A DNA stretch of 64,000 nt from Bryopsis sp. KO-2023 (lineage: Eukaryota > Chlorophyta > Ulvophyceae > Bryopsidales > Bryopsidaceae), in assembly GCA_030272585.1 (NCBI GenBank), contig BSYQ01000011.1, positions 1 through 64,000 of the forward strand, given 5' to 3'. The notes under the pieces are model-generated. The model saw only the letters and a list, made by a program, of their open reading frames with translations. It was not told the origin of the DNA and searched no databases. The stretch's first letter is position 1; every line of letters starts with the position of its first letter. This document shows, piece after piece, positions 896-50,540 of the stretch. The position numbers were made by a program, and so were the translations under genes.

Positions 896-1359
896 CAGAG
901 ATAGGACTTGGGCCGATTTTTTGGTCCGGCTCCGGTCCGGTCCGGTTACGGTCGGGTTACGGTCACCGTACTACGGCCGTAATTCCGTACCGTAACCGGA
1001 GTAATATGCTGTTTTTACGGTACGGAACAGGTACGGTATAGCTACGGCAGGCCCTAAATCATCGTGAAGTAGTGTGGTTCAGTGCTAAAGCGTTAGGCTG
1101 CAGTCTGTAGGGTCGCAGGTTCGAATCCCCCTGGGTTCCTTTGGAATCGCGGGACCCCGCGGGGGTCACTTTCTACGGTTTACGGTTGGTACGGCCGTTA
1201 CGGTCATTACGGTCCGGTACGGAGCGGTACGGAGCGGTACGGAGCTACGGTTACGGCCGTAAAAGTACGATTTTCCGACGAAAATTGTACTCCGGTTACG
1301 GTCCGGTTACGGCGTTACGGTACGGTTACGGTGACCGTAACCGTAAAGTCCTATCACTG
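896..1359. mobile_element. Non-autonomous hAT element N1, copy 1
   Basis: This 464-bp element begins CAGAGATAGGACTT and ends AAGTCCTATCACTG, giving near-perfect 14-bp terminal inverted repeats. It is flanked by an exact 8-bp target duplication TCCCTCAA (888-895 and 1,360-1,367). The CAGAG terminus and 8-bp duplication are hAT hallmarks. Subterminal regions are packed with TTACGG/CCGTAA and CCGGT motifs, the likely transposase-binding arrays. The centre holds a tRNA-Cys-like sequence. It has no coding capacity and splits the pol frame of element E. A second copy lies at 47,959-48,416. Confidence 0.93.
1068..1139 (+). other. tRNA-Cys-like module in N1
   Basis: This 72-nt block resembles a tRNA. 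A box A-like stretch (TGGTTCAGTGCTAAAGC) is followed by CTGCAGT, like the GCA anticodon loop of tRNA-Cys, then by a perfect box B (GGTTCGAATCC) and GGGTTCC in the acceptor position. The 5' acceptor and anticodon stems do not pair well, so a working tRNA is unlikely; an internal Pol III promoter is plausible. It is nearly unchanged in the second N1 copy. Confidence 0.6.
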
Positions 1360-3248
1360 TCCCTCAATCTCTGCATCACCTTTTTCAAGTGAACCTTGTG
1401 TTCTGCCCAACTCTTGCTAAAAATCAAGATGTCATCTAAGTAAACGATGCAGAAGGTATCCAGAAAATCATGTAACACATGATTCATTGTGTTCATGAAG
1501 GTGGCAGGAGCATTTGTCAGCCCAAAAGGAAGAACAATGTACTCGTAGAGGCCATACCTGGTGCGGAAGGCCGTTTTCTCACAGTCTGCAGGGTCCAACC
1601 GCACCTGATGGTAGCCTGCGCAGAGATCAATTTTGCTGAAGCAGCGAGCTCCCTGAATCTGATCCAGCAATTCCTCTATCCTTGGGATAGGGTACCTGTT
1701 CTTCACCGTTAGTTTGTTAAGTGCCCGAAAGTCTACGCACATCCTAAGCTTTCCGTTCTTCTTAGGAACAAACAAAATTGGTGAACCCCAGGGTGACTTG
1801 CTAGGTCTGATAAAACCCTGCTTCAGTAACTCTGCCAACTGCTTCTTCAATTCTTCTCTTTCTGCAAAACTGGCTCTATAAAGCCCCTTTTTCACTGGTT
1901 CTGCCCCTTCTACCAATTCAATCTTGTGGTTCACACCCCTGTCAGGAGGCAATTCCTGCGGCAGTTCCTCTTTAAACAAATCCTGAAACTCCTTTCTGAT
2001 CTGTTTTTCTAGCTCAACTGCCTCTTTCTGTTCCTCTGACAAGGTTTCTGGTTCACTGCCTCTCACTGCATCAGTACTTTCCAAACCATTTATTGAACAT
2101 CCATTATTTACTTCCCGTAAATTCAATAGGTACATCGGCAGGCCCTTGCGAGCTGCCCGAGCTACCTCATGTGCAGACATGAGGTCCAAATCTGCTGTAC
2201 TGCAATCTTCCAATCTGCCTGTTTGCATTCTAAGTTTAACGACTCTACCCTGAGGCCCCTGCAAAGCCACTATCTTTTCCTGCCAATCTATGGTGGGGTT
2301 ATGTTTGATCAACCAAGACATACCCAGCACCAGGTCATATCTGCCCAGTGTTACTGCATACATCTTTTCTTCAGACACAAACCTCCCCATCTTGACACTG
2401 GCCTGCAGTTCTTTTTCTACCTTTTCTGAAGTCCTGCCATCTGCCAACTGAACTTCAGAAACTGCCTCAGAGTGTTGTGTCTGTATGCTGTTTTCCTGCA
2501 ACCAATCTTTCGAAACAAAATTGTCGGTTGCACCACTATCTATCAAAATTCTAGCAAAACAATCTGCCACAAACCCTGTGGTCTTCAACATTCCCTGAGT
2601 CCCCCCATGGACTCCTCTCAACTTCAAAAGTGGGGGTTCATCCAAGCTATATCCTTTAAAGCAAACTTCATTAGGTCTGCCCAGCCCAGATTCCTCTCTC
2701 ACTGAAAACAGGTCTGCGGTGTCTGCCCTCAGATCACCAGCAGCACCAACATGCACTGAAAAATCATGCAGGTCAGGTGTGGCCCCGCCTGGCCCTGCAC
2801 CTACTGCCTCTGAGAATTGAGTAGTTGTGGCTACCGTAGGCACATCAACCCCCTCAATCTCACTCCATGACCCTGCAGGTGTCAGTGCCTCCTGCACTAC
2901 ACCTTCAGAATCCTTCTCTAAAACATCTGCAGATGCTGCGACTCCGCGCCCAGCATCTACCATTGCACTCTTCAAACAAACTGCAAGCCTCCCCAACTTT
3001 GGCAGACCACTTGCAGTACTGCTCACCTTCTCCCTAAGGCCTCCAGAATTCCCTGCACCGGTGTCCCTGCCTGGACCACCACCTGCAGAAATTCCATCCA
3101 TGAATCTTACACACTTCTCCTTGGTTACGGCTACGCACGGCTCATCAACCTTAGAATGGACTCCGCGCCCATAGGCTACCCTCCCCTGAGGTAACACCTT
3201 GTGTGGGTGGCTACGCCGACCTTCCCACACTCCACTTCTGTCCTCCTG
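1360..3248 (-). pseudogene. pol: E pol fragment: protease and reverse transcriptase
   Basis: This is the upstream part of element E polymerase. A Pro/Ser/Glu-rich N-terminal stretch leads into a retroviral-type aspartic protease with ILIDSGATDNF, then an RT with FIRPSKSPWGSPILF, RMCVDFRALN, and the catalytic YLDDILIFS. The reading frame is open from the A2 insertion point at 3,248 to the N1 insertion point. It is separated from its gag (24,547-25,716) by the whole of element A2 and from its RNase H by N1. The chromosomal order, target duplications and matching frames show that these pieces were once one gene. Confidence 0.9.
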
Positions 3249-3672
3249 TGATAGTGAAGCTTGTGGGTGACGCAATAGTGGTCGGCTGTGTTGGTTGGAT
3301 TCGTGATAACTTGCTGGCTAACGCAAGTATACTTGTGGGGTTTGTTGGTTTAGACAACTCTCTAGCTAGCGCGGTTGTGAACGCTACTAGAGCACTTGGG
3401 TTGGGAAGTGATTGCGTCAGGCAAACACTTAACACACACACACACACAAACACACACACAAGCGGGAACACACCAATCCCACGAATCCCGAGTTCTTACA
3501 AAGTAACTATGAGTGTCAAAACAACGAGTGGGCCTCTTAAGTACCCCTAAGTGTAGTACGCTGACGCATGCCCCAAACTCTGGGTCTAATCTGTCTTACT
3601 CGTGAACCCACATGCGTCAGCCACCCTCGGCTCTATCCCAAACTACCTCGTATAGCGCTAAAAGACTAACAT
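3249..3672 (-). repeat. A2 3' LTR
   Basis: This 424-bp LTR reads TGTTAG...CTATCA on the minus strand. It contains a (CA)n/(GT)n microsatellite near 3,427-3,465. The G-rich purine tract lies just upstream in element orientation (C run at 3,676-3,684 on the plus strand). It matches the 5' LTR at 24,075-24,497. Confidence 0.93.
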
Positions 3673-3868
3673 ACGCCCCCCCCGCAAAAAGTGGGCGCCC
3701 ACGCACACCAAAACACAAAGAAAAACAAAAAAACACAAAAACACAAACACAAAACTCACCCACTCCCATACCCACACCCAACTGTCTTGGACCTGTCTCT
3801 TGCTCTGACGTCTCTGACAGCTGCTGCACGCACACACTTGGTCGACGATAACTCCTTTTCCCTCCTCC

Positions 3869-5683
3869 TTAACGCTGTTCCTGCGCTTGCGCTTGCTGGA
3901 TAGCACGCTGCTCTTGCGCATGCGCTTGCTGCACTGCACGATACCGGACACAGGGATCAAATGCGGCAGCCACCCTCTTGGACTTAAGGAATGGCAGATC
4001 CCTTGTGATGCCGGACACCTTGAGCTGCCGCTTCACACACATGTTGCAGTGTGGCAACTTCTCGTGCTCAGCCGGGAACGAAGGGATTTCTTCGAACGTC
4101 GAGCGTGTCAGCTTTAACATATGGGCAGGTAGAGAGAATGGGGAGACGGTGGCGATGGACTTGTTGTCCACTTCCGCGACTTTTTGGACCGCCGTGACGA
4201 TGCGCCCCAGCATCGAGTATGCCAACCAATGAGCATCACACACGAGGTGATACCCACAAGGAAGGACGGAATACTTCTTCTGCGTCAGCCGCTGAGCACT
4301 TGCCTGCATTGGGCTTCTTCCGCACCAAATGCACATGGGCAACTCGTGAAAGTGCCGGTTGCCGCGGTAATTTTGCAAGGCTCGGTCCCTGGGGTTAGTA
4401 TATTGGACCTTCGGCCATTTCTCTGACGCAGTGATGGGGTTGCAAGCCTCCTCGATATCCTCCCGTGACAGGTTCACTTCGCTGGGTGCAGCATCCACTT
4501 TGTCCTGAGCAGCCGCCCTTAATCTCCTGAGCTTAACCTTTTCTCGGAAAGCCCGAAGTGCTGCTTCTGTTGGAGCTAACTCCAACGGTGGATGGACCGC
4601 ACGCTGAACCTCTGTCACCTGGCTTGGCCCTTCATCATTCCTTATTTCCCCGTCCTCCAGTTCAGAACTAGGACCTTCGAGCCTAGGAGGTGGACTGCCG
4701 AAGTCAATTTCTTCGTGAAAATCCAAGTCCAAAAGCTCCTCCTCTCTCATGTCGAATAAGTCCTCCCCCGGTGCTATTGCGGTAGCCTCATCTCCGGGAG
4801 TCTGAACTGTTGGTGCTGGTTGTGAGGGTGCTGGAGTCTTTAATGCGGCAGCCTTTAACTTGAGTAACAAGTTGGCTCTTGCTGCATCTCCAGGCATACG
4901 ATCCCTCGGTGGCTCACCACCTTCATCGTCACCGTCCTCTCGCCTTCTCTTTCCGTGTGGATCTTCATCCCTACACGGCGAGCTTGGGCGTTTGTTTTTC
5001 CCTTTCCCCTTGCCCTTGCTTGAGCCTCCCGCATCATCGTCCTTGGACGGTTCCAGATCAAGTGTTGCGTTTGACAACAGAACTTGGACTTGGCGATCCA
5101 GTTCTTCGCGTACCCGTGGTGCTGGTACCGCCGGGTTCAAACGCAGCATCTTGTCCGTTGTTTCGCTCTGCACTTGAAGTTTTTCAGAGCCGTCTCTGAG
5201 GGACTCTCCCAGCAAATCGATCTGCAGCTCTTGTTCTGCCAATTCCTTCTTAAGGTTGTTGGCTGCTGCACTCCACGCGGTTGCTACAGCTTGCTGCAGC
5301 GTTTCCTCTACCGCGGTAAATCGATCCACTATTCCCCCGAGAGCTTGCTTACGGAGGTCATTCTCACGATGGTTAGCCATCATGTGAGATTGGAACCGCT
5401 GCTTCTTCAGCTTCATGGCTTCCAATTTTTCCTCCAAGACCTTGGTCTTGTCCTCCGCTTCTTTCTTTGCCGCCTCCGTCTTTTCCTTGGCTTTCTCCGC
5501 TGCCTCCTTCGCAGCCTCAGCTGCTTTCGTCCGGTCACTCAACTCTGAGAGCTGCCGGGTTAAGGCCTCATTGTTCTGCAGCACTTCCTCTGCGGTCGAC
5601 GTAAAGTGCTGCAGCTCCTCTTCTTTTTTAGCTACCTCCGCTTCCAACCTCGCAATAATTGCGGCGGGTGTATCGGCAGCCAT
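3869..5683 (-). CDS. A2 accessory protein, coiled coil plus Cys/His-rich C-terminus
   Basis: This 604-residue frame lies between pol and the 3' LTR, the place where envelope genes sit in some Ty3 elements. No signal peptide or membrane segment is visible, so it is not an envelope protein. I start it at the ATG giving MAADTPAAII. Residues about 5-150 form a Lys/Glu/Ala-rich coiled coil, followed by a basic stretch and an acidic middle. The last third holds CIWCGRSP, a PCGYHLVCDAHW block and HCNMCVKRQ, suggesting zinc binding. A CTTATAAG box lies about 120 bp upstream (5,799-5,806) and could be an internal promoter. Its function is unknown. The A1 copy is broken, and element D carries a shorter analogue in the same place. 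Confidence 0.75.
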   Translation of the reverse strand: MAADTPAAIIARLEAEVAKKEEELQHFTSTAEEVLQNNEALTRQLSELSDRTKAAEAAKEAAEKAKEKTEAAKKEAEDKTKVLEEKLEAMKLKKQRFQSHMMANHRENDLRKQALGGIVDRFTAVEETLQQAVATAWSAAANNLKKELAEQELQIDLLGESLRDGSEKLQVQSETTDKMLRLNPAVPAPRVREELDRQVQVLLSNATLDLEPSKDDDAGGSSKGKGKGKNKRPSSPCRDEDPHGKRRREDGDDEGGEPPRDRMPGDAARANLLLKLKAAALKTPAPSQPAPTVQTPGDEATAIAPGEDLFDMREEELLDLDFHEEIDFGSPPPRLEGPSSELEDGEIRNDEGPSQVTEVQRAVHPPLELAPTEAALRAFREKVKLRRLRAAAQDKVDAAPSEVNLSREDIEEACNPITASEKWPKVQYTNPRDRALQNYRGNRHFHELPMCIWCGRSPMQASAQRLTQKKYSVLPCGYHLVCDAHWLAYSMLGRIVTAVQKVAEVDNKSIATVSPFSLPAHMLKLTRSTFEEIPSFPAEHEKLPHCNMCVKRQLKVSGITRDLPFLKSKRVAAAFDPCVRYRAVQQAHAQEQRAIQQAQAQEQR

Positions 5684-5893
5684 TATGTTCGTCGGAAAGA
5701 AAGATATAAACAACGGTTTGTGCGTCTTTAGACTCTTTTTCACTCAGGAGCTCGCTCCGTTTACACAAACACTAGGGCAAAATGGTTCGAGGGCTGCGCT
5801 TATAAGGCTGGGTGACTCGTACACTTTCCTCGTTGGGTTATTGGGGTGAGACACCAACGTTTCGCTCGGTTGGAGTCTCGTCAAGACCACCTC
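5684..5893 (-). other. A2 leader of the accessory frame
   Basis: This non-coding stretch is the A2 sequence just upstream of the accessory ATG. It continues across A1 at 17,040-17,279, because A1 is inserted after ACCTC at 5,889-5,893. It matches 13,353-13,558 of A1 in reverse orientation. Confidence 0.85.
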
Positions 5894-6313
5894 TGTTAGT
5901 CTTTTAGCGCTATCCGAGGTAGTTTGGGATAGAGCCGAGGGTGGCTGACGCATGTGGGTTCACGAGTAAGACAGATTAGACCCAGAGTTTGGGGCATGCG
6001 TCAGCGTACTACACTTAGGGGTACTTAAGAGGCCCACTCGTTGTTTTGACATCTTCTTTACTTTGTAAGAACTCGGGATTCGTGGGATTGGTGTGTTCCC
6101 GCTTGTGTGTGTGTTTGTGTGTGTGTGTGTTAAGTGTTTGCCTGACGCAATCACTTCCCAACCTAAGTGCTCTAGTAGCGTTCACAACCGCGCTAGCTAG
6201 AGAGTTGTCTAAAGCAACAAACCCCACAAGTATACTTGCGTTAGCCAGCAAGTTATCACGAATCCAACCCACACAGCCGACCACTATTGCGTCACCCACA
6301 AGCTTCACTATCA
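5894..6313 (+). repeat. A1 5' LTR
   Basis: This 420-bp LTR starts TGTTAG and ends CTATCA. It includes a GT microsatellite and several GACGC/GCGTC palindromic patches. It is matched by the 3' LTR at 16,615-17,034. Confidence 0.95.
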
Positions 6314-6315
6314 AT

Positions 6316-6327
6316 TGGTTTCGGAGC
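6316..6327 (+). promoter_or_regulatory. A1 primer binding site
   Basis: TGGTTTCGGAGC begins two bases after the LTR, the expected place for the primer binding site of minus-strand cDNA synthesis. It would pair with a 3' end GCTCCGAAACCA. It differs from the usual plant initiator-Met site TGGTATCAGAGC. The same 12-mer follows the 5' LTR of A2, D, E and G. Confidence 0.85.
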
Positions 6328-6458
6328 GAGGCAAGAACTTTAAGTTCTTGAGATCGAAACTTGTGAACGTGGCGCAACAAACGTTTTTGTTTGTTTGTTT
6401 GGTAGAGAGAAACTCCAACCGTGGTTGTTGAGTACTCCCAAATAGTGGCTGAGAGACC

Positions 6459-13558: not shown

Positions 13559-13915
13559 ATGGCTGCCGATCATACTATGGATCCGATCACGATCTAATCG
13601 GTCGTGGATTGATCGGTCCGACCGATTAAATCGTGATCGGGTTTTTCCGATCAGATCGATCGCCGATCAAATCGGTTTGGCCGATCATCGATGGAGATCG
13701 GCCGATCACCAATCTGATCGGATGACCGATTTAATCGGCCAACTTTGATCGGCTGATCACGATCAGACCGATCAACGTCAGCCGATCAAGTGCCGACAGA
13801 TCGCAGCGCTTGATCGGGGTCGGGATCGGGATCGGAGATGCCGATTAGATCGGATCATGATCGGTCAATTGATCGGTCCATCACAAATGCCGAGAAATCA
13901 CCACCCGCAGGTGTT

Positions 13916-13998
13916 TCTGGGGTGCAGGGATTCGAACCTGGGACCTAAGAGACTAGAGACAGACGCATTAACGCTTGGACCACTCGGAGCCACGGTCA
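13916..13998 (-). other. tRNA-like unit, minus-strand half of the N2 core
   Basis: Read on the minus strand this has a box A-like block (TGGCTCCGAGTGGTCCAAGC) and a perfect box B (GGTTCGAATCCC), spaced as in a long-variable-arm tRNA such as Ser or Leu. The T-stem pairs only partly and no anticodon can be assigned with confidence. A TATATAATGACAC box precedes it on the same strand (complement of 14,010-14,022). Confidence 0.55.
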
Positions 13999-14001
13999 CT
14001 A

Positions 14002-14071
14002 GGTCATCCGTGTCATTATATACCTCAGTTTGTCGGACTGACTGATCACGTATATAATGACACGGATGACC
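14002..14071. promoter_or_regulatory. Bidirectional TATA-type promoter between tRNA-like units
   Basis: A perfect 21-bp inverted repeat (14,002-14,022 and 14,051-14,071) places TATATAA about 26-30 bp upstream of each divergent tRNA-like unit. On the plus strand CAACAAACC directly precedes the unit. Upstream TATA-like boxes plus a CAA motif near the start site are the known plant tRNA-gene Pol III signals, so this looks like a divergent Pol III promoter. Confidence 0.5.
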
Positions 14072-14076
14072 AACAA

Positions 14077-14158
14077 ACCGTGGCTCCGAGTGGTCCAAGC
14101 GTTAGTGAGTATGCTTCTAATCCGTTAGGTACCCGGTTCGAATCCTTCCACCTCAGAA
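14077..14158 (+). other. tRNA-like unit, plus-strand half of the N2 core
   Basis: The unit starts ACCGTGGCTCCGAGTGG (box A-like at 14,080-14,093) and has a perfect box B GGTTCGAATCC at 14,135-14,145. It is related to, but diverged from, the minus-strand unit in the region between the boxes. Outer flanks form a perfect 19-bp inverted repeat (13,901-13,919 with 14,154-14,172). Confidence 0.55.
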
Positions 14159-16407
14159 ACACCTGCGGGTGGTGACTTGTCGGTATTTTCGCGAGACCGA
14201 TCAATTCATCGATCAAATGATCAATACCGATCATGATCGGATGCAGGTCCGATCACGATCGGCCGATCACGATCACACCGATCAAGGTCAGCCGATGAAG
14301 TGCCGACAGGTCGCGGCGCTTGATCGTGATCGGGATCGTGATCGGAACAACCGATCCGATCGGTGATCGGCGAACCGATCACGATCACGATCAACATGTG
14401 ATCGGACGATCAAGAGCACGATCAACATTTGATCGGCCGATCACGATCACGATCACCGATCAGCCAAAAATGAAAAAAAAAAAAAAAAAAACCGATCATT
14501 GCTAAAATCGGTTCTAGGACGCAGTTATGATGTCGGATTACTGCTGTGACCTAATATTACCTTAGTTTTGGAAGATCGATCAGATCCATAGTATGCTGCC
14601 GATACACCCGCCGCAATTATTGCGAGATTGGAAGCGGAGGTAGCTCAAAAAGAAGAGGAGCTGCAGCACTTTACGTCGACCGCAGAGGAAGTGCTGCAGA
14701 ACAATGAGGCCTTAACCCGGCAGCTCTCAGAGTTGAGTGACCGGACGAAAGCAGCTGAGGCTGCGAAGGAGGCAGCGGAGAAAGCCAAGGAAAAGGCGGA
14801 GGCGGAAAAGAAAGAAGCGGAGGACAAGACCAAGGTCTTGGAGGAAAAATTGGAAGCCATGAAGCATGAAGAAGCAGCGGTTCCAATCTCACATGATGGC
14901 TAACCATCGTGAGAATGACCTCCGTAAACAAGCTCTCGGGGGAATGGTGGATCGATTTACCGCGGTAGAGGAAACGCTGCAGCGAGCTGTAGCAACCGCG
15001 TGGAGTGCAGCAGCCAACAACCTTAAGAAGGAATTGGCAGAACAAGAGCTGCAGATCGATTTGCTGGGAGAGTCCCTCAGAGACGGCTCTGAAAAACTTC
15101 AAGTGCAGAGCGAAACAACGGACAAGATGCTGCGTTTGAACCCGGCGGTACCAGCACCACGGGTACGCGAAGAACTGGATCGCCAAGTCCAAGTTCTGTT
15201 GTCAAACGCAACACTTGATGTGGAACCGTCCAAGGACGATGATGCGGGAGGCTCTAGCAAGGGCAAGGGAAAAGGGAAAAACAAACGTCCAAGCTCGCCG
15301 TGTAGGGATGAAGATCCACACGGAAAGAGAAGGCGAGAGGACGGTGACGATGAAGGTGGTGAGCCACCGAGGGATCGTATGCCTGGAGATGCAGCAAGAG
15401 CCAACTTGTTACTCAAGTTAAAGGCTGCCGCATTAAAGACTCCAGCACCCTCACAACCAGCACCAACAGTTCGGACTCCCGGAGATGAGGCTACCGCAAT
15501 AGCACCGGGGGAGGACTTATTCGACATGAGAGAGGAGGAGCTGTTGGACTTGGATTTTAACGAAGAAATTGACTTCGGCAGTCCACCTCCTAGGCTCGAA
15601 GGTCCTAGTTCTGAACTGGAGGACGGGGAAATCAGGAATGATGAAGGGCCAAGCCAGGTGACAGAGGTTCAGCGTGCGGTCCATCCACCGTTGGAGTTAG
15701 CTCCAACAGAAGCAGCACTTCGGGCTTTCCGAGAAAAGGTTAAGCTCAGGAGATTAAGGGCGGCTGCTCAGGACAAAGTGGATGCTGCACCCAGCGAAGT
15801 GAACCTGTCACGGGAGGATATCGAGGAGGCTTGCAACCCCATCACTGCGTCAGAGAAATGGCCGACGGTCCAATATACTAACCCCAGGGACCGAGCCTTG
15901 CAAAATTACCGCGGCAACCGGCACTTTCACGAGTTGCCCATGTGCATTTGGTGCGGGAGAAGCCCAATGCAGGCAAGTGCTCAGCGGCTGACGCAGAAGA
16001 AGTATTCCGTCCTTCCTTGTGGGTATCACCTCGTGTGTGATGCTCACTGGTTGGCATACTCGATGCTGGGGCGCATCGTCACGGCGGTCCAAAAAGTCGC
16101 GGAAGTGGACAACAAGTCCATCGCCACCGTCTCCCCATTCTCTCTACCTGCCCATATGTTGAAGCTGACACGCTCGACGTTCGAAGAAATCCCTCCGTTC
16201 CCGGCTGAGCACGAGAAGTTGCCACACTGCAACATGTGTGTGAAGCGGCAGCTCAAGGTGTCCGGCATCACAAGGGATCTGCCATTCCTTAAATCCAAGA
16301 GGGTGGCTGCCGCATTTGATCCCTGTGTCCGGTATCGTGCAGTGCAGCAAGCGCATGCGCAAGAGCAGCGTGCTATCCAGCAAGCGCAAGCGCAGGAACA
16401 GCGTTAA

Positions 16408-30940: not shown

Positions 30941-31389
30941 CTTCTGGCCATACTATGGATCTGATCGATCTTCCAAAACTAAGGTAATATTAGGTCACAG
31001 CAGTAATCCGACATCATAACTGCGTCCTAGAACCGATTTTAGCAATGATCGGTTTTTTTTTTTTTTTTTTTCATTTTTGGCTGATCGGTGATCGTGATCG
31101 TGATCGGCCGATCAAATGTTGATCGTGCTCTTGATCGTCCGATCACATGTTGATCGTGATCGTGATCGGTTCGCCGATCACCGATCTGATCGGTTGTTCC
31201 GATCACGATCCCGATCACGATCAAGCGCCGCGACCTGTCGGCACTTCATCGGCTGACCTTGATCGGTGTGATCGTGATCGGCCGATCGTGATCGGACCTG
31301 CATCCGATCATGATCGGTATTGATCATTTGATCGATGAATTGATCGGTCTCGCGAAAATGCCGACAAGTCACCACCCGCAGGTGTTTCT

Positions 31390-31468
31390 GAGGTGGAAGG
31401 ATTCGAACCGGGTACCTAACGGATTAGAAGCATACTCACTAACGCTTGGACCACTCGGAGCCACGGTT
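31390..31468 (-). other. tRNA-like unit in N2 copy 2 (minus)
   Basis: Box A-like GGCTCCGAGTGGTCCAAGC and box B GGTTCGAATCC on the minus strand. It corresponds to the plus-strand unit of copy 1, because the element is inverted. Confidence 0.55.
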
Positions 31469-31546
31469 TGTAGGTCATCCGTGTCATTATATACGTGATC
31501 TGTCAGTCCGACAAACTGAGGTATATAATGACACGGATGACCTAGT

Positions 31547-31627
31547 GACCGTGGCTCCGAGTGGTCCAAGCGTTAATGCGTTTGTCTCTAGTCTGTTAGG
31601 TCCCAGGTTCGAATCCCTGCACCCCAG
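31547..31627 (+). other. tRNA-like unit in N2 copy 2 (plus)
   Basis: Box A-like block at 31,551-31,564 and box B GGTTCGAATCC at 31,607-31,617, preceded by TATATAATGACAC at 31,522. It corresponds to the minus-strand unit of copy 1. Confidence 0.55.
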
Positions 31628-31981
31628 AAACACCTGCGGGTGGTGATTTCTCGGCATTTGTGATGGACCGATCAATTGACCGATCATGATCCGATCTAAT
31701 CGGCATCTCCGATCCCGATCTCGATCCCGATCAAGCGCCGCGACCTGTCGGCACTTGATCGGCCGACGTTGATCGGTCTGATCGTGATCGGCCGATCAAA
31801 GTTGGCCGATTAAATCGGTCAGCCGATCAGATTGGTGATCGGCCGATCTCCATCGATGATCGGCCAAACCGATTTGATCGGCGATCGATCTGATCGGAAA
31901 AACCCGATCACGATTTAATCGGTCGGACCGATCAATCCACGACCGATTAGATCGTGATCGGATCCATAGTATGCTTCTGGC

Positions 31982-34029: not shown

Positions 34030-34599
34030 TGAAACGGATTTGTTTCCTGAGGCTGAATACTTCCAGCCGCCACTTAACCCGTTCTTCACACACGTTGGGA
34101 GACGACCAGAAGTTCTGTAAGAAAGGTCTGAGACACGAGAGTATACCACTGAATCTTATTTCAACAAGCTTGTTCTTTACAACGATTCCCAGCCTTTTAT
34201 ACTCTCAGCCCAGAGCTTCTAGAAACTCCCAGCCCATCTCCTAACCTTACAAACACTAGCTATCATCTAGCTCTCCCCAAAACGTCTCTATCATTTCTCA
34301 GCTCAGCCCTTCTAGCCAGAGCTCCGACTAACCCTTTATAACCCTTGATAACCTCTAGACTAAGGACCCAGACTGAAGCTCCTTCCAGTCTGACTCCCGA
34401 CTCTCTACCCAAACTCTCAGCCATCTGAGTCCTGACACTGAATATACTGAACCTGGTTCGAACTCTTTTCACTACGTTTCAGCCTCTCATTGAGCATCAC
34501 GTAACTACCCCATTCCAGTCAGTCCGCGACTACCTGGAACTCTCAGACTGTAACCTCTGTTTTCCGCCTAGATCTTCGCCTACTAAGTCAGCCGTTTCA
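34030..34599 (-). repeat. Solo LTR of family D, inverted
   Basis: This 570-bp LTR on the minus strand reads TGAAACGG...CCGTTTCA. Its flanks do not match each other as a 5-bp duplication: CCTGT on the left and CTGTT on the right. Each matches a flank of element D instead, the signature of recombination between two D insertions. It carries the same TATAAAAG-type promoter as the other D LTRs. Confidence 0.92.
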
Positions 34600-35182
34600 C
34601 TGTTCGGCAGTCAGGGAGGCCATCTTTGTTGTCGCACACCTTGCTTCGATGCATATCTGATCAGTCCCTCCAGCTGACCATCTCCCCAGGAATGCTTCAA
34701 ACAGTTGGAATCCTGACAGAGCTGTTTGAAGTCATGTCCAACTTTTCCCTGGATCGATGTGAAATCAAGCCCGATCTCTGGGAGCCAGGTTCCTACAAAT
34801 CCAGGTTTTTCACGACACATTGGCTGCACAATGAAACCGGGGCTGCATTCTATTTCTGGTTGACTCGTGAAGGTGTGAATACAGCTGCGGTGGCCGAAGA
34901 GAGTGGGATTTTTGTGGGAGCTGAACCAGCTGATCCCAATGGGATGCCCTTCAGGGCTATGGCTGTATCAGAGAGAATGACGCCAGGGTCATCGGCTAAA
35001 CGTCAATTGTCGTTGAGCGAAGTGACCTTGACCAAATGTTCTGTGTCTCAGATCGATAGCTGTGGGAGTACCACCACATCCGTCAGTGGGGAGTTGCCAT
35101 GGCTTGTGAACTTACTCAGTGACAGCTTCAAGCGAAATGGAAAGTTGGCGAGCGTTAATGATGGGGACACAAAGGTGAAAAC
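34600..35182 (+). pseudogene. VPS13-like exon in inverted orientation
   Basis: This is non-TE coding sequence in an otherwise TE-filled stretch. The open frame contains LQLTISPGMLQTVGILTEL, FEVMSNFSLDRCEIKPDLW and THWLHNETGAAFYFWLTREG, which resemble the VPS13 part after the segment ending WEVFVEPWSLK found at 51.3 kb. The main gene is on the minus strand, so this exon is flipped. Its left edge continues in frame with 50,541-50,570 if the D-mediated inversion is undone. The right edge is the H2 terminal repeat at 35,183, with GTGAAAAC as the presumed 8-bp target site. Confidence 0.55.
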
Positions 35183-35201
35183 CAGTCATGGGCTGCACAG
35201 G
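35183..35201 (+). mobile_element. H2 terminal fragment
   Basis: CAGTCATGGGCTGCACAGG is identical to the left end of H1 (43,506-43,524). It is cut after 19 bases by the family D LTR. ACAGG at 35,197-35,201 is one half of the D target duplication. Confidence 0.85.
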
Positions 35202-35263
35202 TGAAACGGCTGACTTAGTAGGCGAAGATCTAGGCGGAAAACAGAGGTTACAGTCTGAGAGTT
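35202..35263 (+). repeat. Tandem duplication of the first 62 bp of the D LTR
   Basis: The first 62 bases of the D LTR occur twice in a row here: TGAAACGG starts at 35,202 and again at 35,264. The 3' LTR does not have this. It may be a by-product of the recombination that inverted this region. Confidence 0.85.
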
Positions 35264-35834
35264 TGAAACGGCTGACTTAGTAGGCGAAGATCTAGGCGGA
35301 AAACAGAGGTTACAGTCTGAGAGTTCCAGGTAGTCGCGGACTGACTGGAATGGGGTAGTTACGTGATGCTCAATGAGAGGCTGAAACGTAGTGAAAAGAG
35401 TTCGAACCAGGTTCAGTATATTCAGTGTCAGGTCTCAGATGGCTGAGAGTTTGGGTAGAGAGTCGGGAGTCAGACTGGAAGGAGCTTCAGTCTGGGTCCT
35501 TAGTCTAGAGGTTATCAAGGGTTATAAAGGGTTAGTCGGAGCTCTGGCTAGAAGGGCTGAGCTGAGAAATGATAGAGACGTTTTGGGGAGAGCTAGATGA
35601 TAGCTAGTATTTGTAAGGTTAGGAGATGGGCTGGGAGTTTCTAGAAGCTCTGGGCTGAGAGTATAAAAGGCTGGGGATCGTTGTAAAGAACAAGCTTGTT
35701 GAAATAAGATTCAGTTGTATACTCTCGTGTCTCAGACCTTTCTTACAGAACTTCTGGTCGTCTCCCAACGTGTTGTGAAGAACGGGTTAAGTGGCGGCTG
35801 GAAGTATTCAGCCTCAGGAAACAAATCCGTTTCA
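35264..35834 (+). repeat. D 5' LTR
   Basis: TGAAACGG...CCGTTTCA, 571 bp. A TATA box TATAAAA is at 35,662-35,668, so transcription probably starts near 35,690-35,700. The 3' LTR has the same box near 43,320. Confidence 0.93.
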
Positions 35835-35847: not shown

Positions 35848-35855
35848 GAGTTTCT

Positions 35856-36086: not shown

Positions 36087-36097
36087 GTTCGTTGTCT

Positions 36098-36753: not shown

Positions 36754-36760
36754 GTCTGAG

Positions 36761-41298: not shown

Positions 41299-41392
41299 CT
41301 CCTGTTTTCCTGAGTTCGGGTTGAGTGTGTGCGAGTGCGAGTGTGTGCGAGAGACAGTTTGGAGTTCGAAAAAGAAAAAGAAAGCAGACAAC

Positions 41393-42921: not shown

Positions 42922-43491
42922 TGAAACGGCTGACTTAGTAGGCGAAGATCTAGGCGGAAAACAGAGGTTACAGTCTGAGAGTTCCAGGTAGTCGCGGACT
43001 GACTGGAATGGGGTAGTTACGTGATGCTCAATGAGAGGCTGAAACGTAGTGAAAAGAGTTCGAACCAGGTTCAGTATATTCAGTGTCAGGTCTCAAATGG
43101 CTGAGAGTTTGGGTAGAGAGTCGGGAGTCAGACTGGAAGGAGCTTCAGTCTGGGTCCTTAGTCTAGAGGTTATCAAGGGTTATAAAGGGTTAGTCGGAGC
43201 TCTGGCTAGAAGGGCTGAGCTGAGAAATGATAGAGACGTTTTGGGGAGAGCTAGATGATAGCTAGTATTTGTAAGGTTAGGAGATGGGCTGGGAGTTTCT
43301 AGAAGCTCTGGGCTGAGAGTATAAAAGGCTGGGAATCGTTGTAAAGAACAAGCTTGTTGAAATAAGATTCAGTGGTATACTCTCGTGTCTCAGACCTTTC
43401 TTACAGAACTTCTGGTCGTCTCCCAACGTGTGTGAAGAACGGGTTAAGTGGCGGCTGGAAGTATTCAGCCTCAGGAAACAAATCCGTTTCA
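42922..43491 (+). repeat. D 3' LTR
   Basis: 570 bp, TGAAACGG...CCGTTTCA, followed by AACAG (43,492-43,496), which pairs with CTGTT at 34,600-34,604 in inverted orientation. Confidence 0.93.
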
Positions 43492-46400
43492 AACAGCCCC
43501 ACTATCAGTCATGGGCTGCACAGGACAGACCCCTGTCTTGTGCGCCGCACAGGACAGGGTTCTGTGCACCCTGTGCTGTCCTGTCCTGTGCGGCGAAAAT
43601 CCACAGGACAGACCCACGTCTGTCCTGTGCTGTACAATGACTGTGTAACCCCGGACTTCGACCCCCTGTACAACCTGTGCGCACACGTGAGACTGTGTAC
43701 AGCACAGTGCGCAGTCTGTGCAGCACAGACTGCGTACTGTGCTGCACAGATCACGTGTACTGTGTGCTGCACAGACCAAGTACTGTACTGCACAGACTGC
43801 GCACTGTGCACAGAGCTGGGCTGTACCGTAACGACCCCCTACGGTACGGTACGACACGTTACATACCGTACCGTACCGTAAGGGGTCGTTACGGTACGGT
43901 ACGGTGCCGGATATTTTCACGTTACGGTACAACATCGGTACCGGGTCGGTACAATACGTTGTCGCCAACGGGCGCCACCCGTGTAACGGTCGTTGTTGCA
44001 ACGTCCCACACACGTTGCTGCACCGACACACACGGTTCCAATAACGATGTTCGTTACAACAACGTATTGACGTTGCAGTAACGACATGGCGGTACTGCAA
44101 CGTGTGGGGACGTTACAGCAACGATGCCGCCACTCCTTGTCGTTTTCATGTGTACCGCGTTTGTGTGACCGGTTTAAGCTAGGTTTCTGCCGTCGGTTTT
44201 TTTCCTGTTGCACGTTACGGTAGACTTCAACGGTATCGAAAAAGAGGGCAAAAACAACGGAAAGAAAATCAAAAAAACACTATGGACTCCGGAGCGCCTG
44301 TGAGTGGAAGTGGGGCGGGGGGCGATCGCCCAGAGGAGAGACCAGTGCAGGAGCCCGCGCATGGCAAGGGGCCGAGGGTGGAAGAGCGTTCAGGGTTGGA
44401 GGTGGTGATGGAGCAGGCGGAGAGAACTGGGGGTGGTGGCGGCAGCAGTGGGGGGCCTAGCACGGCGGCGACGTCGAAGAAGAGGGCGGCGGAGGCTGGA
44501 AAGGGTGGCGATGTCAAAAAAAGGAAGGCATCAAAGCACGCTTGGGTGAAAGCGTTGTTTTCGATCGGGGGGGTCCTTCAGGTGAGAAAAAACGTCATCC
44601 GGTGCAGCACCGGTTTTGTTGCGTTACGAACACCGATCAAAGACGGTACCGCAACGCCATAGGCGGTGCAGTAACGCACACATCGGTGCAGTAACGCATT
44701 GATGTCGGTATTGATAACGAATGCAACATTTGATTTGTTTTTGTGTTTTCTTTTTTTTTCTATTCACAGGTGGAAGCACCCACACCTGGGGCCAAGTTTC
44801 TACGGTGCCAGCTTTGCGACAAGTTGGTGTCGTACTCCAACTCTTCCCTGACCACGCCCTTAGGCCATGCAAAGTCCCACGGGATCACCAGCGAGGATGC
44901 TCTAAAAGCACGCCTCCAGCAAACAGAGTAAGTTCTTCATCAACTGGGTTTGATCTCAAATCTGCTGATATCATATAATTTCCTGTTGTCTGTTTTTTTT
45001 TCTTTTGTGCCTGATTAATTGTGGTTACCTGCAGCCCCTCGCAGCGCGATACCCAGCTGGAGCAGTTTGTGCAGGCCAAGGCCTGGCCCCCACAATCCCC
45101 AATGTGGAAAAATGCTGCACAGGGAGTGGCCCTTTGGATTGCGTGTGAGGGGCTGCCGTTAAGTGTGGCTGACTCGCCTGGCTGGGCTGAGATGATCAAG
45201 CTGTTCAACCCGCGGGCCCCCAAGTTTTCACGTCGCACCATCACCCGGAAGGTAAGGGATTTTTCTGGTTTGGGTTTTTCTTTTTTGTGTTTTGTGTTTT
45301 GTTTTGTTTTGTTTGTTTTGTTTTGTTTTGTTTTCTACTGTTTTTAATATTATTTTTCTGATGTGGTGCAGGTCCAAGAACTCTTTCAAGAGGGATTGGG
45401 CAAGCTGAAGGAGAAGATGGGGGCCTACCAAGAGGCAGCCATCAAGCCCGCCCTCACATGTGACGCGTGGACGAGCAGGGCAGGGGACAAGTACCTGTCC
45501 CTCACCATCCACACTGTGGTGACGCCCTGGGTGGCTGGGGGAGCTGTGAAGGAGGGTGAGGCCTGGCGTTTGGCGACATACAGCATGGGATCAATTCCGG
45601 TGGAGGAGGAGTCCGTGACGGCGCAAGGTAATTGGGGTTGGGCTTGTGATTGTGTGAATGAGGGAAAGAAACAAAAATATGAAAAGTTATTATATTGTTT
45701 TTTTAAACTTGATGATCAGCAGTCAATTTGGAAGTCAGTTGTTTGTGGGGGTTTGGGTTTTTTTTTACTATGGGTGGGAAAAAAAAGAAGTCGTTATGCG
45801 TAACGACCCGACGGTGTTGTAACGAAACACAATCGTTGTAAGCACCGTCCCTATGTCGGTGCAAATACCGTGTAAGCGTTGTTGTAACGTCTACACGGTG
45901 CTGTAACGACTTGATGCGTTGTTGTAACGGTTTCAGACGGTACCAGTACCGACCGAAGACGTTACAACAACGCATCAAGTCGTTCCTCATAACGGTCTCC
46001 TGTAATCAATGTTTCTTACCTCTGTGTTGTTTCTTGTGTTGCAGTTATCAAGGACCATGTCCTGCAGGCTGCCGGACAAGTCGGGCTGACGTACTACAGG
46101 CCCACAATAGTCACAGACTGTGGGTCCAATGTAGTCAGCTGCTTCGACCGACTTCTCTTCTGGGACTGGCAACCATGTGTGTTGCACCTGCTGCAGACCG
46201 CTGTGCGGAAATGGCTGGCTGGGCTGGGGGGCACCAGCCCTAATCTGAAGAAGGCCCTCGACAAGGCCACCGCCTTTGTATCGCATGTGTCGAGGTAAAT
46301 TCCATTTGCTGATTTCTGTTCACTTATGTATCATTCTTGTTTGTGGTGTTTGTTTTGTTTTTTGTTTTTTCTGTGTGCTTGTGAAATATTAATTTTATAT

Positions 46401-47958
46401 TTGACGATAACATTTCTGTGTCATGTGATGTTGTGTTACAGATCCACCAGGTCGAAGGCAATCCTGGATAGGCTGCAGAGGGAGGAGTTTCAACGCGCGG
46501 CGAAGGAGGGGGAGGCGGTGGACCTGTTGTCAGAGAGCGACACCGATGACGAGGGCCTCCCATGGATCACCCCCAACAGGGTCCTCACGCTGAAGGTCCC
46601 ATGCGACACCCGCTGGAACTCCACCTTCCACATGATCGTCCGTCTTTTGGATGTGGAGGGGGCTGCGAAGAGGTGGTTCGAGGTGGAGTTCCAGCGGTAC
46701 AAGTCGCCACTGGAGATTGCCGATTGGTAAGTTAATTTCCTGCTGTGCTTATTAAGTTTCTTTATTGATTTTCTGGTTTGTTTCCTGTTTTGTTTTTAAT
46801 GATTTTCTGGTTTGTTTATTAAGTTTTTTTTATTGATATTTTGGTTTTCAGGGAGGCCCTCCGCCTATTGAGGACCATCCTGTTCCCGGTGGCGATGACC
46901 TCCAAGAAGCTCGAAGGGAACGATTACCCCACCGGTGGAGACATGCTGAGGATCATTCTGAGGTGTGTAATCCAAATTAAATCCAGAAAACAAAACAGAA
47001 CCAATAGCAAAGTGAGGTTTTTTGTTGTTTATATATATATATATATATATATATCTAATATATAAACACAGCAGAATCACAAGTACATCAGTAATCTAGG
47101 CTGAAAAGTAAAGTGGGTTTTTTACGAATCTGCCAGATTTTCTCTGTGCTATGTGTTGATTTGTTTTTGTATGAACTTCAGGTGCTGCAAACACCTCATG
47201 AGGGGGTGCCCAGAGACGACCATCGATCACACCCCGCATCCCTCTGACATCCGGGAGGCGATGTCCGTGTTGGCATGCCACCTGTATGCCCAGATCGACG
47301 ACCCAAACTGGGTGTTCGGTGCTGCATGCCTCGCGGTGATGGACCCAACGGTGAACAACAAGTTCATCAGGGAGATGTTCGATGCACCGGCGTGGGCGGA
47401 GCTTCCGAAGGTGATGGCGCAATATCTCGACGCGGACGCTTTCATGACGGAGGTAAGTGTTGCTTTTGCTTGTGTTTTTCTTTCATTGCTTGGGTGCATG
47501 TGGATCACTTAAAAAAGAAGAGAAAGAGAAAATAAACAGGATCGTTACTGTACCGACCCAGATCGTTACTGTACCGACCCAGATCGTTACTGTACCGACC
47601 TGGGTCGTTACTGCACCGATATTGGGTCGGTGCTGTACCGACCAGGTCGGTACAGTAACGATCCGGACGTTGTTGTAACGTGTTAAAGACGTTATGTGTA
47701 CCGATGTTTGGCGTTACTGAAACCGATGTTCTACGTTGTTGTAACGATGTTGTGTTTCATTACAGGTGAGGGATGAAATAGTTTCCCTGGCTGCGCAGAA
47801 GGCCACGGACAAGAACATGTTCGGGGGGAACAATGAGGGGGACACCGAAGGCGGGAGTGGAGACGTGGGGATGCAGCCCCAGGAGTCTTTTTTGGACGAC
47901 TCTGACGATGATTCGCCTCCTGAGGCAATGCCGGCGGGGCCCACCGCCAATCTGCTGG

Positions 47959-48416
47959 CAGAGATAGGACTTGGGCCAAATTTTTGGTCCGACTCCGGTC
48001 CGGTCCGGTTACGGTCGGGTTACGGTCACCGTACTACGGCCGTAACTCCGTACCGTAACCGGAGTAATATGTTGTTTTTACGGTACGGAACAGGTACGGT
48101 ATAACTACGGTAGGCCCTAAATCACCGTGAAGTAGCGTGGTTCAGTGCTAAAGCGTTAGGCTGCAGTCAGTAGGGTCGCGGGTTCGAATCCCCCTGGGTT
48201 CCTTTGGAATCGCGGGACCCTGCGGGGGTCACTTTCTACGGTTGTTACGGCCGTTACGGTCGTTACGGTCCGGTACGGAGCGGTACGGAGTGGTACGGTG
48301 CTACGGTTACGGCCGTAAAAGTACGATTTTCTGACGAAAATTGTACTCCGGTTACGGTCCGGTTACGGTGGTTACGGTCCGGTTACGGTGACCGTAACCG
48401 TAAAGTCCTATCTCTG
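47959..48416. mobile_element. Non-autonomous hAT element N1, copy 2
   Basis: This 458-bp copy runs from CAGAGATAGGACTT to AAGTCCTATCTCTG (perfect 14-bp terminal repeats), with exact 8-bp target duplication TCTGCTGG (47,951-47,958 and 48,417-48,424). It is about 90% or more similar to copy 1 by eye and keeps the ACGG arrays and tRNA-Cys-like core. It lies inside exon 9 of the hAT transposase. Confidence 0.95.
48131..48202 (+). other. tRNA-Cys-like module in N1 copy 2
   Basis: Nearly the same as 1,068-1,139: box A-like block, CTGCAGT at the anticodon-loop position, perfect box B GGTTCGAATCC and GGGTTCC. The T-stem pairs slightly better here (GCGGG against CCCCC) than in copy 1. Confidence 0.6.
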
Positions 48417-48734
48417 TCTGCTGGACATTGAGGGGATGGCAAGGAGCGAGCTGACCGCATACGAGACCCTCCCTATGCAGCCCCGGGGTTCCCAGCTCAA
48501 GTTCTGGGGCACGGAAGGCAGGAATTACCCAATCCTGCAGGCTGTGGCTGTCGACTTCCTGGTTGTCCCCGCTTCCTCTGCCGAATCAGAGAGATCATTC
48601 AGCCAATCGGGAGCCCTGGTTCGTGCCCGCCGTGCTTCCCTCAGCCCAGACAACGTCCAAGCCCTGAGTTTCATAAAACACAACAAGGGCCTTTTTAGGA
48701 ACTAGTGTTTTTTTGGGGGGCAGAGAGGGGGTGG

Positions 48735-49065
48735 ATTGTGTTTCTTTTGCTTGACTGGGTTTTATTTGCGAGCTGGGTTTTATTTGTGAACTGGGTTTTA
48801 TTTGTGAACTGGGTTTTATTTGCTTGCCTGGGTTTTATTAGTGAACTGGGTTTTATTTGCTTGACTGGGTTTTATTTGCTTGACTGGGTTTTATTAGTGA
48901 ACTGGGTTTTATTTGCTTGACTGGGTTTTATTTGCTTGACTGGGTTTTATTTGCTTGACTGGGTTTTATTTGTGAACTGGGTTTTATTTGCTTGACTGGG
49001 TTTTATTTGCTTGACTGGGTTTTATTTGCGAGCTGGGTTTTATTTGTGAACTGGGTTTTTTTTAT
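48735..49065 (+). repeat. About 19-bp minisatellite downstream of the transposase
   Basis: A unit of the type GACTGGGTTTTATTTGCTT recurs about 17 times with variants (GAACTGGGTTTTATTTGT). It lies just after the transposase stop, in the 3' untranslated part of the hAT gene. Confidence 0.9.
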
Positions 49066-49239
49066 CAACTGCTTTGTTATCATGATATGATTGTGTACGT
49101 TTGCCATGTTGCACTCTTAACTTCAATATAAGCCCCCAGGGGGATCCCCTGCTGAATGGGTTTTGGACTGGGAAAGTTCAAGAAAGAACACCCAATCAGT
49201 TAGCCACACTCATGGCAAGGTAGAGTGAAAAGGAAATCA

Positions 49240-49561
49240 GGATCGGTACAACACCGACCAACGATCGGTGCGCGTAACGCGATCGATCGTTGTTGTAACG
49301 TCTTCTCTCGGTACAGACGTTATAGGAGCCGGCGTAGACGTTACTGATAACGTACTGCGTTACAACAACGCTTTGGCGTTACAGTAACGTCGGATCGTTG
49401 TTGTACCGGACTTGGACGTTGTTGTACCGACTGGGTCGTTGTTGTAACGTGTGCAACGTGTTGTAACGTCCGATCGGTGCGTGCACCGACCGAACACGTT
49501 GCTGTACCGACCCTGTCCGTTACGGTACGGTGCGTTACAAACGGGTTACTGCCCAGCTCTG
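49240..49561 (+). repeat. hAT right subterminal array
   Basis: Motifs such as CGTTGTTGTAACG, CGGTACA and GTAACG recur many times up to the terminal repeat GTTACTGCCCAGCTCTG. They mirror the left array at 43,811-44,120 and are probable transposase-binding sites. Confidence 0.75.
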
Positions 49562-49789
49562 ACTGTGCAGCACAGTACTTGATCTGTGCAGCACAGACCT
49601 TGATCTGACCAATCTTACGCCTGTTTTAGACAGGTCGGTGTGACTTAATTAAGCGCACATAAGCGTGCTAATCGAGTATCAACCAATTGGGAAGATACTT
49701 ACTTAATTAAAGAACTAAGTGATATTATTATATCCATTATCAATGCATGAATGACGTGAGCCAAGCTCACCAGCCTCGAAATAGGGCTG

Positions 49790-49870
49790 TCGGTCGACAG
49801 TAGGATTCGAACTCGGGTTGGCTAAGTCCGAGTCCTACGCACCAAACCAATGGCGGACCCCACCACAGGG
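49790..49870 (-). other. tRNA-like unit, minus half of H1 core
   Basis: On the minus strand: a GGTTTGGTGCGTAGGACTC block, then box B GAGTTCGAATCC (complement of 49,802-49,813). Box A is weak and the T-stem pairs poorly, so this is a degenerate tRNA-like sequence. The GGTGGGG...GCGTAGGACTC part recalls plant elongator tRNA-Met. Confidence 0.45.
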
Positions 49871-49959
49871 ACGCTCTAGTGGGGGCTGTTACCCTTAAGT
49901 ACCTAGTTTTCGTAATTAAAAAAAATGGGTACTTAAAGGTAACGGCCCCCACTTGAGCG

Positions 49960-50040
49960 TCCCTGTGGTGGGGTCCGCCATTGGTTTGGTGCGTAGGACT
50001 CGGACTTAGCCAACCCGAGTTCGAATCCTACTGTCGACCG
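49960..50040 (+). other. tRNA-like unit, plus half of H1 core
   Basis: This is the mirror of the minus unit, with box B GAGTTCGAATCC at 50,017-50,028. The two units diverge from the A/T-rich centre, as in N2. Confidence 0.45.
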
Positions 50041-50540
50041 ACAGCCCTATTTCGAGGCTGGTGAGCTTGGCTCACGTCATTCATGCATTGATAATGGATA
50101 TAATAATATCACTTAGTTCTTTAATTAAGTAAGTATCTTCCCATTTGGTTGATACTCGATTAGCACGCTTATGTGCACTTAATTAAGCGCACAGACCTGT
50201 CTAAAACAGGCGTACTAGGTGTAAGACCGTAGTCTGTGCAGCACAGACTGCGGACTGTGCAGTACAGTACTTCATCTGTGCTGCACAGTCCAGACAGACT
50301 CTGCACAGACGTATGGTCCCGAGCGCCTGTGCGCACCTGTTCTGTCCTGTGCGCTGCACAGACAATAATCGCCCTGTGCTGCACAGACAGGCGCACAGAC
50401 CTGCACAGTCAACGCACAGACCCATGTCTGTCCTGTGCTGTACAGGTCTGTGCGCCTGTGCTGCACAGGTCGAACCCTGTGCACAGAACAGACAGTCTGT
50501 TCTGTCCTATCCTGTGCACAGGGGTCTCGGCCCATGTCTG

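What the first reader, a model, noticed from the sequence alone, without database searches (positions are those of the whole stretch)
896..50540. Three unrelated DNA-element families (N1, N2, H) converge on one layout: TIR, short-motif array, tRNA-like core
N1 (CAGAGATAGG ends, ACGG arrays), N2 (CATACTATGG ends, GATCGG arrays) and H (CAGTCATGGG ends, CTGTGCAGCACAG arrays) share no termini or arrays. Yet all have 8-bp target duplications, dense family-specific repeats and a core with box B-bearing tRNA-like sequence (single in N1, divergent palindromic pairs in N2 and H). The three tRNA-like sequences differ (Cys-like, Ser/Leu-like, perhaps Met-like), suggesting repeated independent capture. 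This may be a class of tRNA-core elements not described as such.
Basis: partly seen in the sequence, partly recalled or inferred. Interest (0 to 1): 0.88.

Follow-up and report, generated by a model that had tools for sequence, protein, structure and literature searches.

The report
hAT MITEs carrying Pol III-like cores
Several short, recently active jumping-DNA families in this eukaryote genome are stripped-down copies of ordinary hAT transposons that carry, in the middle, a borrowed tRNA-promoter-like segment (often as a mirror-image pair); the cores are not recognisable tRNAs and are partly shared between families, but whether they do anything is untested.

Summary
The elements and their layout are real; the tRNA identities and the claim of three unrelated families are not. 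N1, N2 and H are non-autonomous hAT-type elements. All 60 N1 and N2 loci fetched as such have matching ends and perfect 8-bp target duplications. Autonomous hAT partners were found for N1 and (one end seen) N2.

A MITE (43506-50540) holds an autonomous hAT, here called K (43811-49561), which holds an N1 copy (47959-48416).

Box B lies near the middle of N1, N2, H and a fourth family (K-MITE), beyond shuffle expectation. It is absent from the K, N1 and N2 autonomous sequence examined, from short H MITEs and from a short N1 MITE. So cores are foreign to the autonomous elements and optional.

No core matches the tRNA covariance model or ARAGORN, so the "Cys/Leu/Met" labels fail. Cores are not fully independent: H shares a palindrome (77-80%) with elements called M, and N1 shares 59 bp (88%) with K-MITE. 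BLAST does not join N2 to these.

Best reading: deletion-derived hAT MITEs carrying Pol III type-2-promoter-like modules, some shared between families. Benefit to the element is unproven. Close precedents are MER6 and coral CMITEs.

The parts
896..1359 (+). N1 MITE copy 1 (464 bp), inserted in a retrotransposon pol region (reverse transcriptase ORF at 1326-3317, minus strand); TSD TCCCTCAA at 888-895 and 1360-1367
1118..1128 (+). box B (GGTTCGAATCC) of N1 copy 1
13571..14595 (+). N2 MITE copy 1 (1025 bp); TSD CTGCCGAT; inserted just behind the start codon of an ORF whose empty site lies at 5663-5683 (minus strand)
13929..13937 (-). left-arm box B of N2 copy 1
14050..14189 (+). right arm of the N2 core: TATA-like block, A-box-like block, box B, 3' block; identical runs of 22, 28, 11 and 22 bp against the left arm (block names are my reading)
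30949..31973 (-). N2 MITE copy 2 (1025 bp), opposite orientation; TSD CTTCTGGC; next to a chromodomain retrotransposon ORF (28607-30952, minus strand)
31400..31615 (.). divergent box B pair of N2 copy 2 (31400 minus, 31607 plus)
43506..43810 (+). left part of the H MITE (CTGTGCAGCACAG array), TIR CAGTCATGGGC; TSD CCCACTAT before it; its last 8 bases are the TSD of K
43811..49561 (+). autonomous hAT transposon K nested in H (5751 bp including N1); TIR CAGAGCTGGGC; TSD ACTGTGCA
47959..48416 (+). N1 MITE copy 2 (458 bp), nested in what reads as a coding exon of the K transposase; TSD TCTGCTGG
48490..48684 (+). hAT dimerisation domain PF05699 of the K transposase
49570..50540 (+). right part of the H MITE with the palindromic core; end CAGACATGGGC; TSD CCCACTAT after it
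49647..50167 (.). palindromic H core, 77-80% identical to cores of other elements (M, L081-L086); box B at 49804-49812 (minus) and 50019-50027 (plus)

Best explanation
N1, N2, H and the newly recognised K-MITE are non-autonomous hAT elements. Shown: N1 and K-MITE keep only the ends of an autonomous hAT (TIR plus short-repeat arrays), N2 shares such sequence with its partner more diffusely, and the interior is replaced by a core absent from the autonomous sequence examined. Shown: the core contains box B; an A-box-like and an upstream TATA-like block can be read beside it in most families; it comes as one unit (N1) or as two divergent units forming a palindrome (N2, K-MITE, H, M). Shown: cores are partly shared between families (M and H; N1 and K-MITE) and are optional. 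Inferred: hAT transposase acting in trans cuts and reinserts the elements (8-bp duplication), so the core is a passenger spread by the MITE. Inferred: the core derives from a Pol III type-2 transcription unit (tRNA or SINE relative) whose RNA fold has decayed or was never a tRNA. Inferred: inverted pairing comes from inverted duplication during gap repair or replication. Whether the core is transcribed or binds TFIIIC is open.
For: TIR plus perfect 8-bp TSD in 60 of 60 fetched loci. Autonomous partner of N1: L077 42-4784, same TIR, TSD ATCATCAT, hAT dimerisation domain 68.1 bits. N1 1-105 is 97% and N1 419-465 94% identical to its ends. K: domain at 59.9 bits; K-MITE ends 94.6% and 82.7% identical to K. 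N2 partner: L078, end CCATAGTATG, 788-aa ORF with the domain at 65.8 bits and a C-terminal match to solved Hermes transposase, E 3.8e-9. Box B in N1auto, Kauto and the part of N2auto held: none in any of the 3. Genome: GTTCGAATCC 2289 times against 315 for a one-base variant and 37 for the reversed word; 21 of 24 N1 terminal sites on C1 have an N1/K tail within 320 bp. Sharing: H and M cores 77-80%; N1 224-282 88% identical to K-MITE, starting at box B. N2 arms: the A-like and B windows hold 0 of 20 differences (P 0.016). 30 N1 copies without a substitution, though these are the best-scoring copies; others such as L005 and L008 differ.
Against: A boxes are loose fits and not significant one by one (my estimate, no call). 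A TTTT Pol III stop follows box B within 60 nt in 1 of the 10 arms or cores listed, against 1 of 2 real tRNA-Lys genes in the same list (at 40 and 62 nt). Fold energies are unremarkable (z above -2) in 4 of 6 cores. N2 is not joined to the other cores by BLAST. The N2auto sequence lacks its 3' end, so a core there is not excluded, and its match to N2 is array-like (72-100% in pieces, the two longest at 78%), not a clean end-to-end deletion. No autonomous partner was identified for H, and the M termini were never seen.
Confidence: 0.8

Rival explanations
1. Each core is a SINE (tRNA-derived retroposon) that happened to insert into a MITE, as in MER6; the palindromes are two SINEs inserted head to head.
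For: Box B plus A-like and TATA-like blocks; a tail after box B shared by N1 and K-MITE. MER6 is a published precedent (PMC6887750, passages read).
Against: No free-standing copy was seen in the held loci: of 7 off-centre N1-tail box B hits, 6 lie in TIR+TSD elements. Among the 100 listed of 520 tail hits, 26 of 37 K-type hits form divergent pairs exactly 222 bp apart, and 32 of 33 H/M pairs keep 99 bp, unlike independent insertions. Target duplications around the modules themselves were not searched for.
Confidence: 0.25
2. The box B motif is incidental: the cores are hairpin or palindrome DNA of MITEs, and the match to a Pol III promoter is chance fixed by copy number.
For: No tRNA fold. In H/M the motif is one side of a hairpin of up to 11 bp. 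Element copies multiply one sequence, so 2289 genomic hits are few independent events. Unassigned single box B words are near background, 44 against 30.
Against: Box B near the middle in four families, at most 10 of 1000 shuffles each; three sets of cores not joined by BLAST; identical TATA-like and A-like runs between the N2 arms.
Confidence: 0.25
3. Three unrelated families independently captured three different tRNA genes.
For: N2 and the N1/K and H/M sets are not joined by BLAST.
Against: No tRNA-model or ARAGORN hit; H shares its core with M and N1 its tail with K-MITE.
Confidence: 0.07

Closest known systems
hAT superfamily MITEs (Ac/Ds-type, Hermes-type deletion derivatives; general knowledge)
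   Same: 8-bp TSD, CA-start short TIRs, dense subterminal short repeats, ends shared with autonomous hATs whose transposase has PF05699 and, for N2auto, a Hermes-like C-terminus
   Different: carry a central box-B module not found in the autonomous element
MER6 MITE with V-SINE (PMC6887750; passages read)
   Same: internal-deletion MITE whose interior holds a SINE-derived segment spread by DNA transposition
   Different: mariner (TA target duplication), not hAT; one family with a variant; the paper says the SINE head was lost, whereas here the promoter-like head motifs are kept; the word palindrom- does not occur in it
Coral CMITEs (PMC2872659; passages read)
   Same: MITE families whose internal region is more conserved between families than the ends and shows no similarity to the autonomous partner; origin left open by the authors
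   Different: piggyBac-type (TTAA); the word tRNA does not occur in that paper, and the 60-bp internal consensus printed there has no box B
S. pombe inverted-repeat boundary elements with B boxes (recalled, not read)
   Same: inverted box B motifs
   Different: fixed chromosomal boundaries, not mobile; TFIIIC binding is not shown here

Membership tests
hAT superfamily (non-autonomous) | 8-bp target site duplication | tested here: met
   60 of 60 fetched N1/N2 loci; H and K in the window
hAT superfamily (non-autonomous) | short TIRs shared with an autonomous element that encodes a hAT transposase | tested here: met
   N1 with L077, K-MITE with K, N2 at one end with L078; for H no autonomous partner was identified, so for H this is open
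hAT superfamily (non-autonomous) | mobilised by hAT transposase | not testable with these tools
   only inferred; one empty site for an N2 copy is seen in the window
tRNA genes / tRNA pseudogenes | match to the tRNA covariance model or a cloverleaf | tested here: not met
   no RF00005 hit at E<=10 in cores; ARAGORN 0; one 13-base tmRNA piece of 9.7 bits, E 2.9, on an N1 box B
Pol III type-2 promoter | box B | tested here: met
Pol III type-2 promoter | box A at tRNA-like distance | tested here: inconclusive
   A-like blocks read by eye; a mismatch or an insertion each
Pol III type-2 promoter | oligo-T terminator downstream | tested here: inconclusive
   TTTT at +50 in the N2 right arm, about +150 in N1, +455 in one H arm, none found in the other six arms within the sequence given
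Pol III type-2 promoter | transcription by Pol III | not testable with these tools
   no expression data
SINE | free copies with own target duplications and 3' tail | tested here: inconclusive
   no free copy seen in held loci; genome letters were limited
miRNA hairpins (weak Rfam hits to cores) | gathering score | tested here: not met
   all below the family thresholds

The most novel reading that the evidence does not exclude
The cores are selected cargo: divergent or single TFIIIC/Pol III-binding units, exchanged between hAT MITE families, that keep inserted copies in open chromatin (as B-box inverted-repeat boundaries are thought to do in fission yeast; recalled) and so keep them available to transposase. 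This would make promoter-like cores a recurrent, functional module of non-autonomous DNA transposons.
Probability: 0.12. Interest if true: 0.75.

Novelty: new variant of a known kind. Interest (0 to 1): 0.45.

Why it matters
It shows several MITE families in one genome whose ends come from different autonomous hATs while their interiors hold foreign, partly shared Pol III-like modules, one family with 30 sampled copies free of substitutions and therefore very young. If the modules recruit TFIIIC or Pol III, it would give a testable reason why some MITE interiors are kept, a question that the coral CMITE authors left open (PMC2872659, passages).

Tried and rejected
Considered and dropped: (a) isolated box B words as genome-wide extra TFIIIC sites: of the first 100 listed hits (C1 up to 6.19 Mb), 44 were unassigned singles, which looked enriched against the reversed-word control (37 genome-wide); but the one-base variant CTTCGAATCC has 30 in the same stretch, so they are mostly background. 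Eight single hits were fetched: two are sequence X, six stay unexplained, none is a tRNA or Rfam match. (b) RNA structure selection in the H/M arms: 95.5% of cells pair against 22-39% in slid controls, but only one pair has changes on both sides, and 13 of 500 shuffles reach the covariation score and 335 of 500 the pair count; too weak to claim. The helices were drawn from these same sequences. (c) N2 constraint by polymorphism (32 rows: 30 loci plus the two window copies, which are also among the 30): variable sites are 13 of 166 in the conserved blocks, 19 of 112 in the core spacers, 24 of 748 outside; the core is the most variable part, so this does not support constraint on the core as a whole. 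A first version of this count was spoilt by wrong orientation and is not used. (d) Sequence X (L053, L058, L091, L092) as a free SINE source: 7 full-length or long hits have a partial partner about 6-13 kb away, so it looks like an LTR. The N2auto transposase has one relative in the protein collection, 39% identical, without a name. (f) Nine paper searches listed no description of box-B or tRNA-core hAT MITEs; only open-licence papers are held there, and apart from two papers I saw listings only.
Full report
SETTING. The window is C11:1-64000 of an unnamed 91.09-Mb eukaryote genome in 28 contigs. Searches found no tRNA gene and no Rfam family above threshold in it.

THE ELEMENTS. N1 has two copies in the window (896-1359 and 47959-48416), N2 two (13571-14595 and 30949-31973, opposite orientation), H one (43506-50540). 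All are flanked by perfect 8-bp duplications. In 30 N1 and 30 N2 loci fetched from the genome, three of them the window's own copies, 60 of 60 have the expected ends and a perfect 8-bp duplication. The 40 scored N1 copies (of 554 candidates) and the 40 scored N2 copies (of 317) match over full length at 98-100%. The 30 fetched N1 copies show no substitution, only length differences, so the burst looks very recent; these are the best-scoring copies, not a random sample, and other copies (L005, L008) differ. The first N2 copy sits just behind the start codon of an ORF whose unbroken site lies in the same window at 5663-5683 on the other strand.

H IS A NEST. A scan for TIR plus 8-bp TSD in all held sequence (352,531 bases; 205 candidates, 0 in a single-base-shuffled control) showed that 43811-49561 is an element of its own with ends CAGAGCTGGGC and duplication ACTGTGCA. 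Of the 205 candidates, 87 have the ends of the families named here and 118 are other words. The inner element encodes a transposase piece: Pfam hAT dimerisation domain, 59.9 bits; six other ORF pieces given to Pfam had no match. I call it K. The N1 copy at 47959-48416 sits in what reads as a coding exon of K. H proper is therefore about 1.28 kb.

AUTONOMOUS PARTNERS. The genome has at least 150 hits to the hAT dimerisation domain in several ORF-length classes (150 of 185 candidates scored). L077 holds a 4743-bp element with N1's ends and the domain. N1 1-105 is 97% identical to one of its ends and N1 419-465 94% to the other. L078 has the N2 terminal sequence on one side, GATCGG arrays and a 788-aa ORF with the domain and a C-terminal match to solved Hermes transposase; its other end was not found in the 6.4 kb held and its similarity to N2 is array-like. 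A K-derived MITE was found in L066: it keeps 298 bp (94.6%) and 277 bp (82.7%) of K's ends. So N1 and K-MITE are hAT deletion derivatives with their own ends and arrays, N2 probably so, and H is hAT-like by its ends and duplication only.

THE CORES. Box B (GTTCGANTC) is near the middle of N1, N2, H and K-MITE, with at most 10 of 1000 dinucleotide shuffles reaching the observed count in each. It is absent from N1auto, Kauto and the 6.4 kb of N2auto, from three short H MITEs (335-412 bp), a 330-bp N1 MITE (L007, TSD CACCCAAC), two CAGGCCACTTT MITEs and one CAGAGTTGTGC MITE; a further H copy, in L018, has no box B but that of an N1 inside it. By pattern, 21 of 24 N1 terminal sites on C1 have an N1/K tail within 320 bp. 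For H, 4 of 83 examined terminal sites have the exact H/M core word within 1 kb, and in one of these (C5:2296593) the H element ends before the core; cores with a changed word would be missed. Genome-wide GTTCGAATCC occurs 2289 times, against 37 for the reversed word and 315 for a one-base variant. Of the first 100 listed (C1), 28 form fixed-spacing divergent pairs (10 pairs at 208, 3 at 211, 1 at 212), 22 are N1/K-tail singles, 4 an LTR-like repeat, 2 H/M, and 44 unassigned, the last near the background of 30.

NOT RECOGNISABLE tRNAs. The tRNA covariance model gives no hit to the cores at E<=10 (for the window; for six loci covering N1, N2, K-MITE, M and two other box B sites, with a real tRNA-Lys at 76.9 bits as positive control). 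The one tRNA-clan match to a core is a 13-base piece of the tmRNA model, 9.7 bits, E 2.9, on an N1 box B. ARAGORN finds none in 60 loci or in 14 more. TATA-like and A-like blocks upstream of box B can be read in the alignment. Between the two N2 arms (139 columns, 20 differences) runs of 22, 28, 11 and 22 bp are identical; the A-like and B windows hold no difference (P 0.016), and 126 of 20000 permutations reach the sum of the four longest runs. That these blocks are TATA-like and A-like is my reading, not a tool result.

SHARED CORES. The H palindrome is 77-80% identical to palindromes (M; six fetched, L081-L086, four of them in the BLAST) that lie in different flanking arrays. N1 224-282 is 88% identical to both arms of K-MITE, starting at box B. 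N2 is not joined to the others by BLAST. The 21-base H/M word occurs 213 times; of 100 listed, 66 form divergent pairs, 32 of 33 pairs spaced exactly 99 bp. The N1/K tail occurs 520 times; of 100 listed, 37 are K-type and 26 of these form divergent pairs 222 bp apart. So cores have been exchanged or inherited across families, and three sets remain that BLAST does not join.

MECHANISM. Shown: MITE anatomy, autonomous partners (N1, K; N2 in part), foreign and optional cores, core sharing. Inferred: trans-mobilisation by hAT transposase through the subterminal arrays; the core as a passenger; an origin from a Pol III type-2 unit. Unknown: transcription, TFIIIC binding, any benefit. Against function: few terminators, weak covariation, and N2's core is its most variable part.

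KNOWN KINDS. MER6 (SINE segment in a mariner MITE; passages read) and coral CMITEs (interior more conserved than ends; passages read) are the nearest precedents. Nine of the ten allowed paper searches listed no report of box-B cores in hAT MITEs, within an open-licence library only.

Noticed in passing
43506-50540: Three-level nest: H MITE holds autonomous hAT K, which holds an N1 MITE in what reads as a coding exon.
   Followed up: yes
G000 C5:2779182-3144253 and 3665776-3768604; C12:868828-1501504: Clustered tRNA genes (tRNA-Ile TAT in the C12 loci looked at by ARAGORN), many at about 3.0-3.5 kb spacing on C5.
   Followed up: no
L091, L092, L053 278, L058 312: A recurrent sequence (X) with TATA-, A- and B-like motifs; 7 of its hits have a partial partner about 6-13 kb away, suggesting an LTR that carries a tRNA-like segment.
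   Followed up: partly
L087 about 289 (minus strand): Short unit that by eye could pair as an 8-bp outer stem, one hairpin and a T-arm around TTCGAAT, like a tRNA lacking an arm; no ARAGORN or Rfam match.
   Followed up: no
3869-5743 (minus) and 14863-16407 (plus): Near-identical ORF (MAADTPAAIIARLEAE...) beside each of two inverted chromodomain retrotransposon copies; N2 breaks its start in one.
   Followed up: partly
35202-35325; 34173-35690: Perfect 62-bp tandem duplication and inverted repeat arms around it, not examined.
   Followed up: no
L065 431-1310, L074 599-1466: Another MITE type (CAGGCCACTTT ends, 8-bp TSD) without box B.
   Followed up: partly
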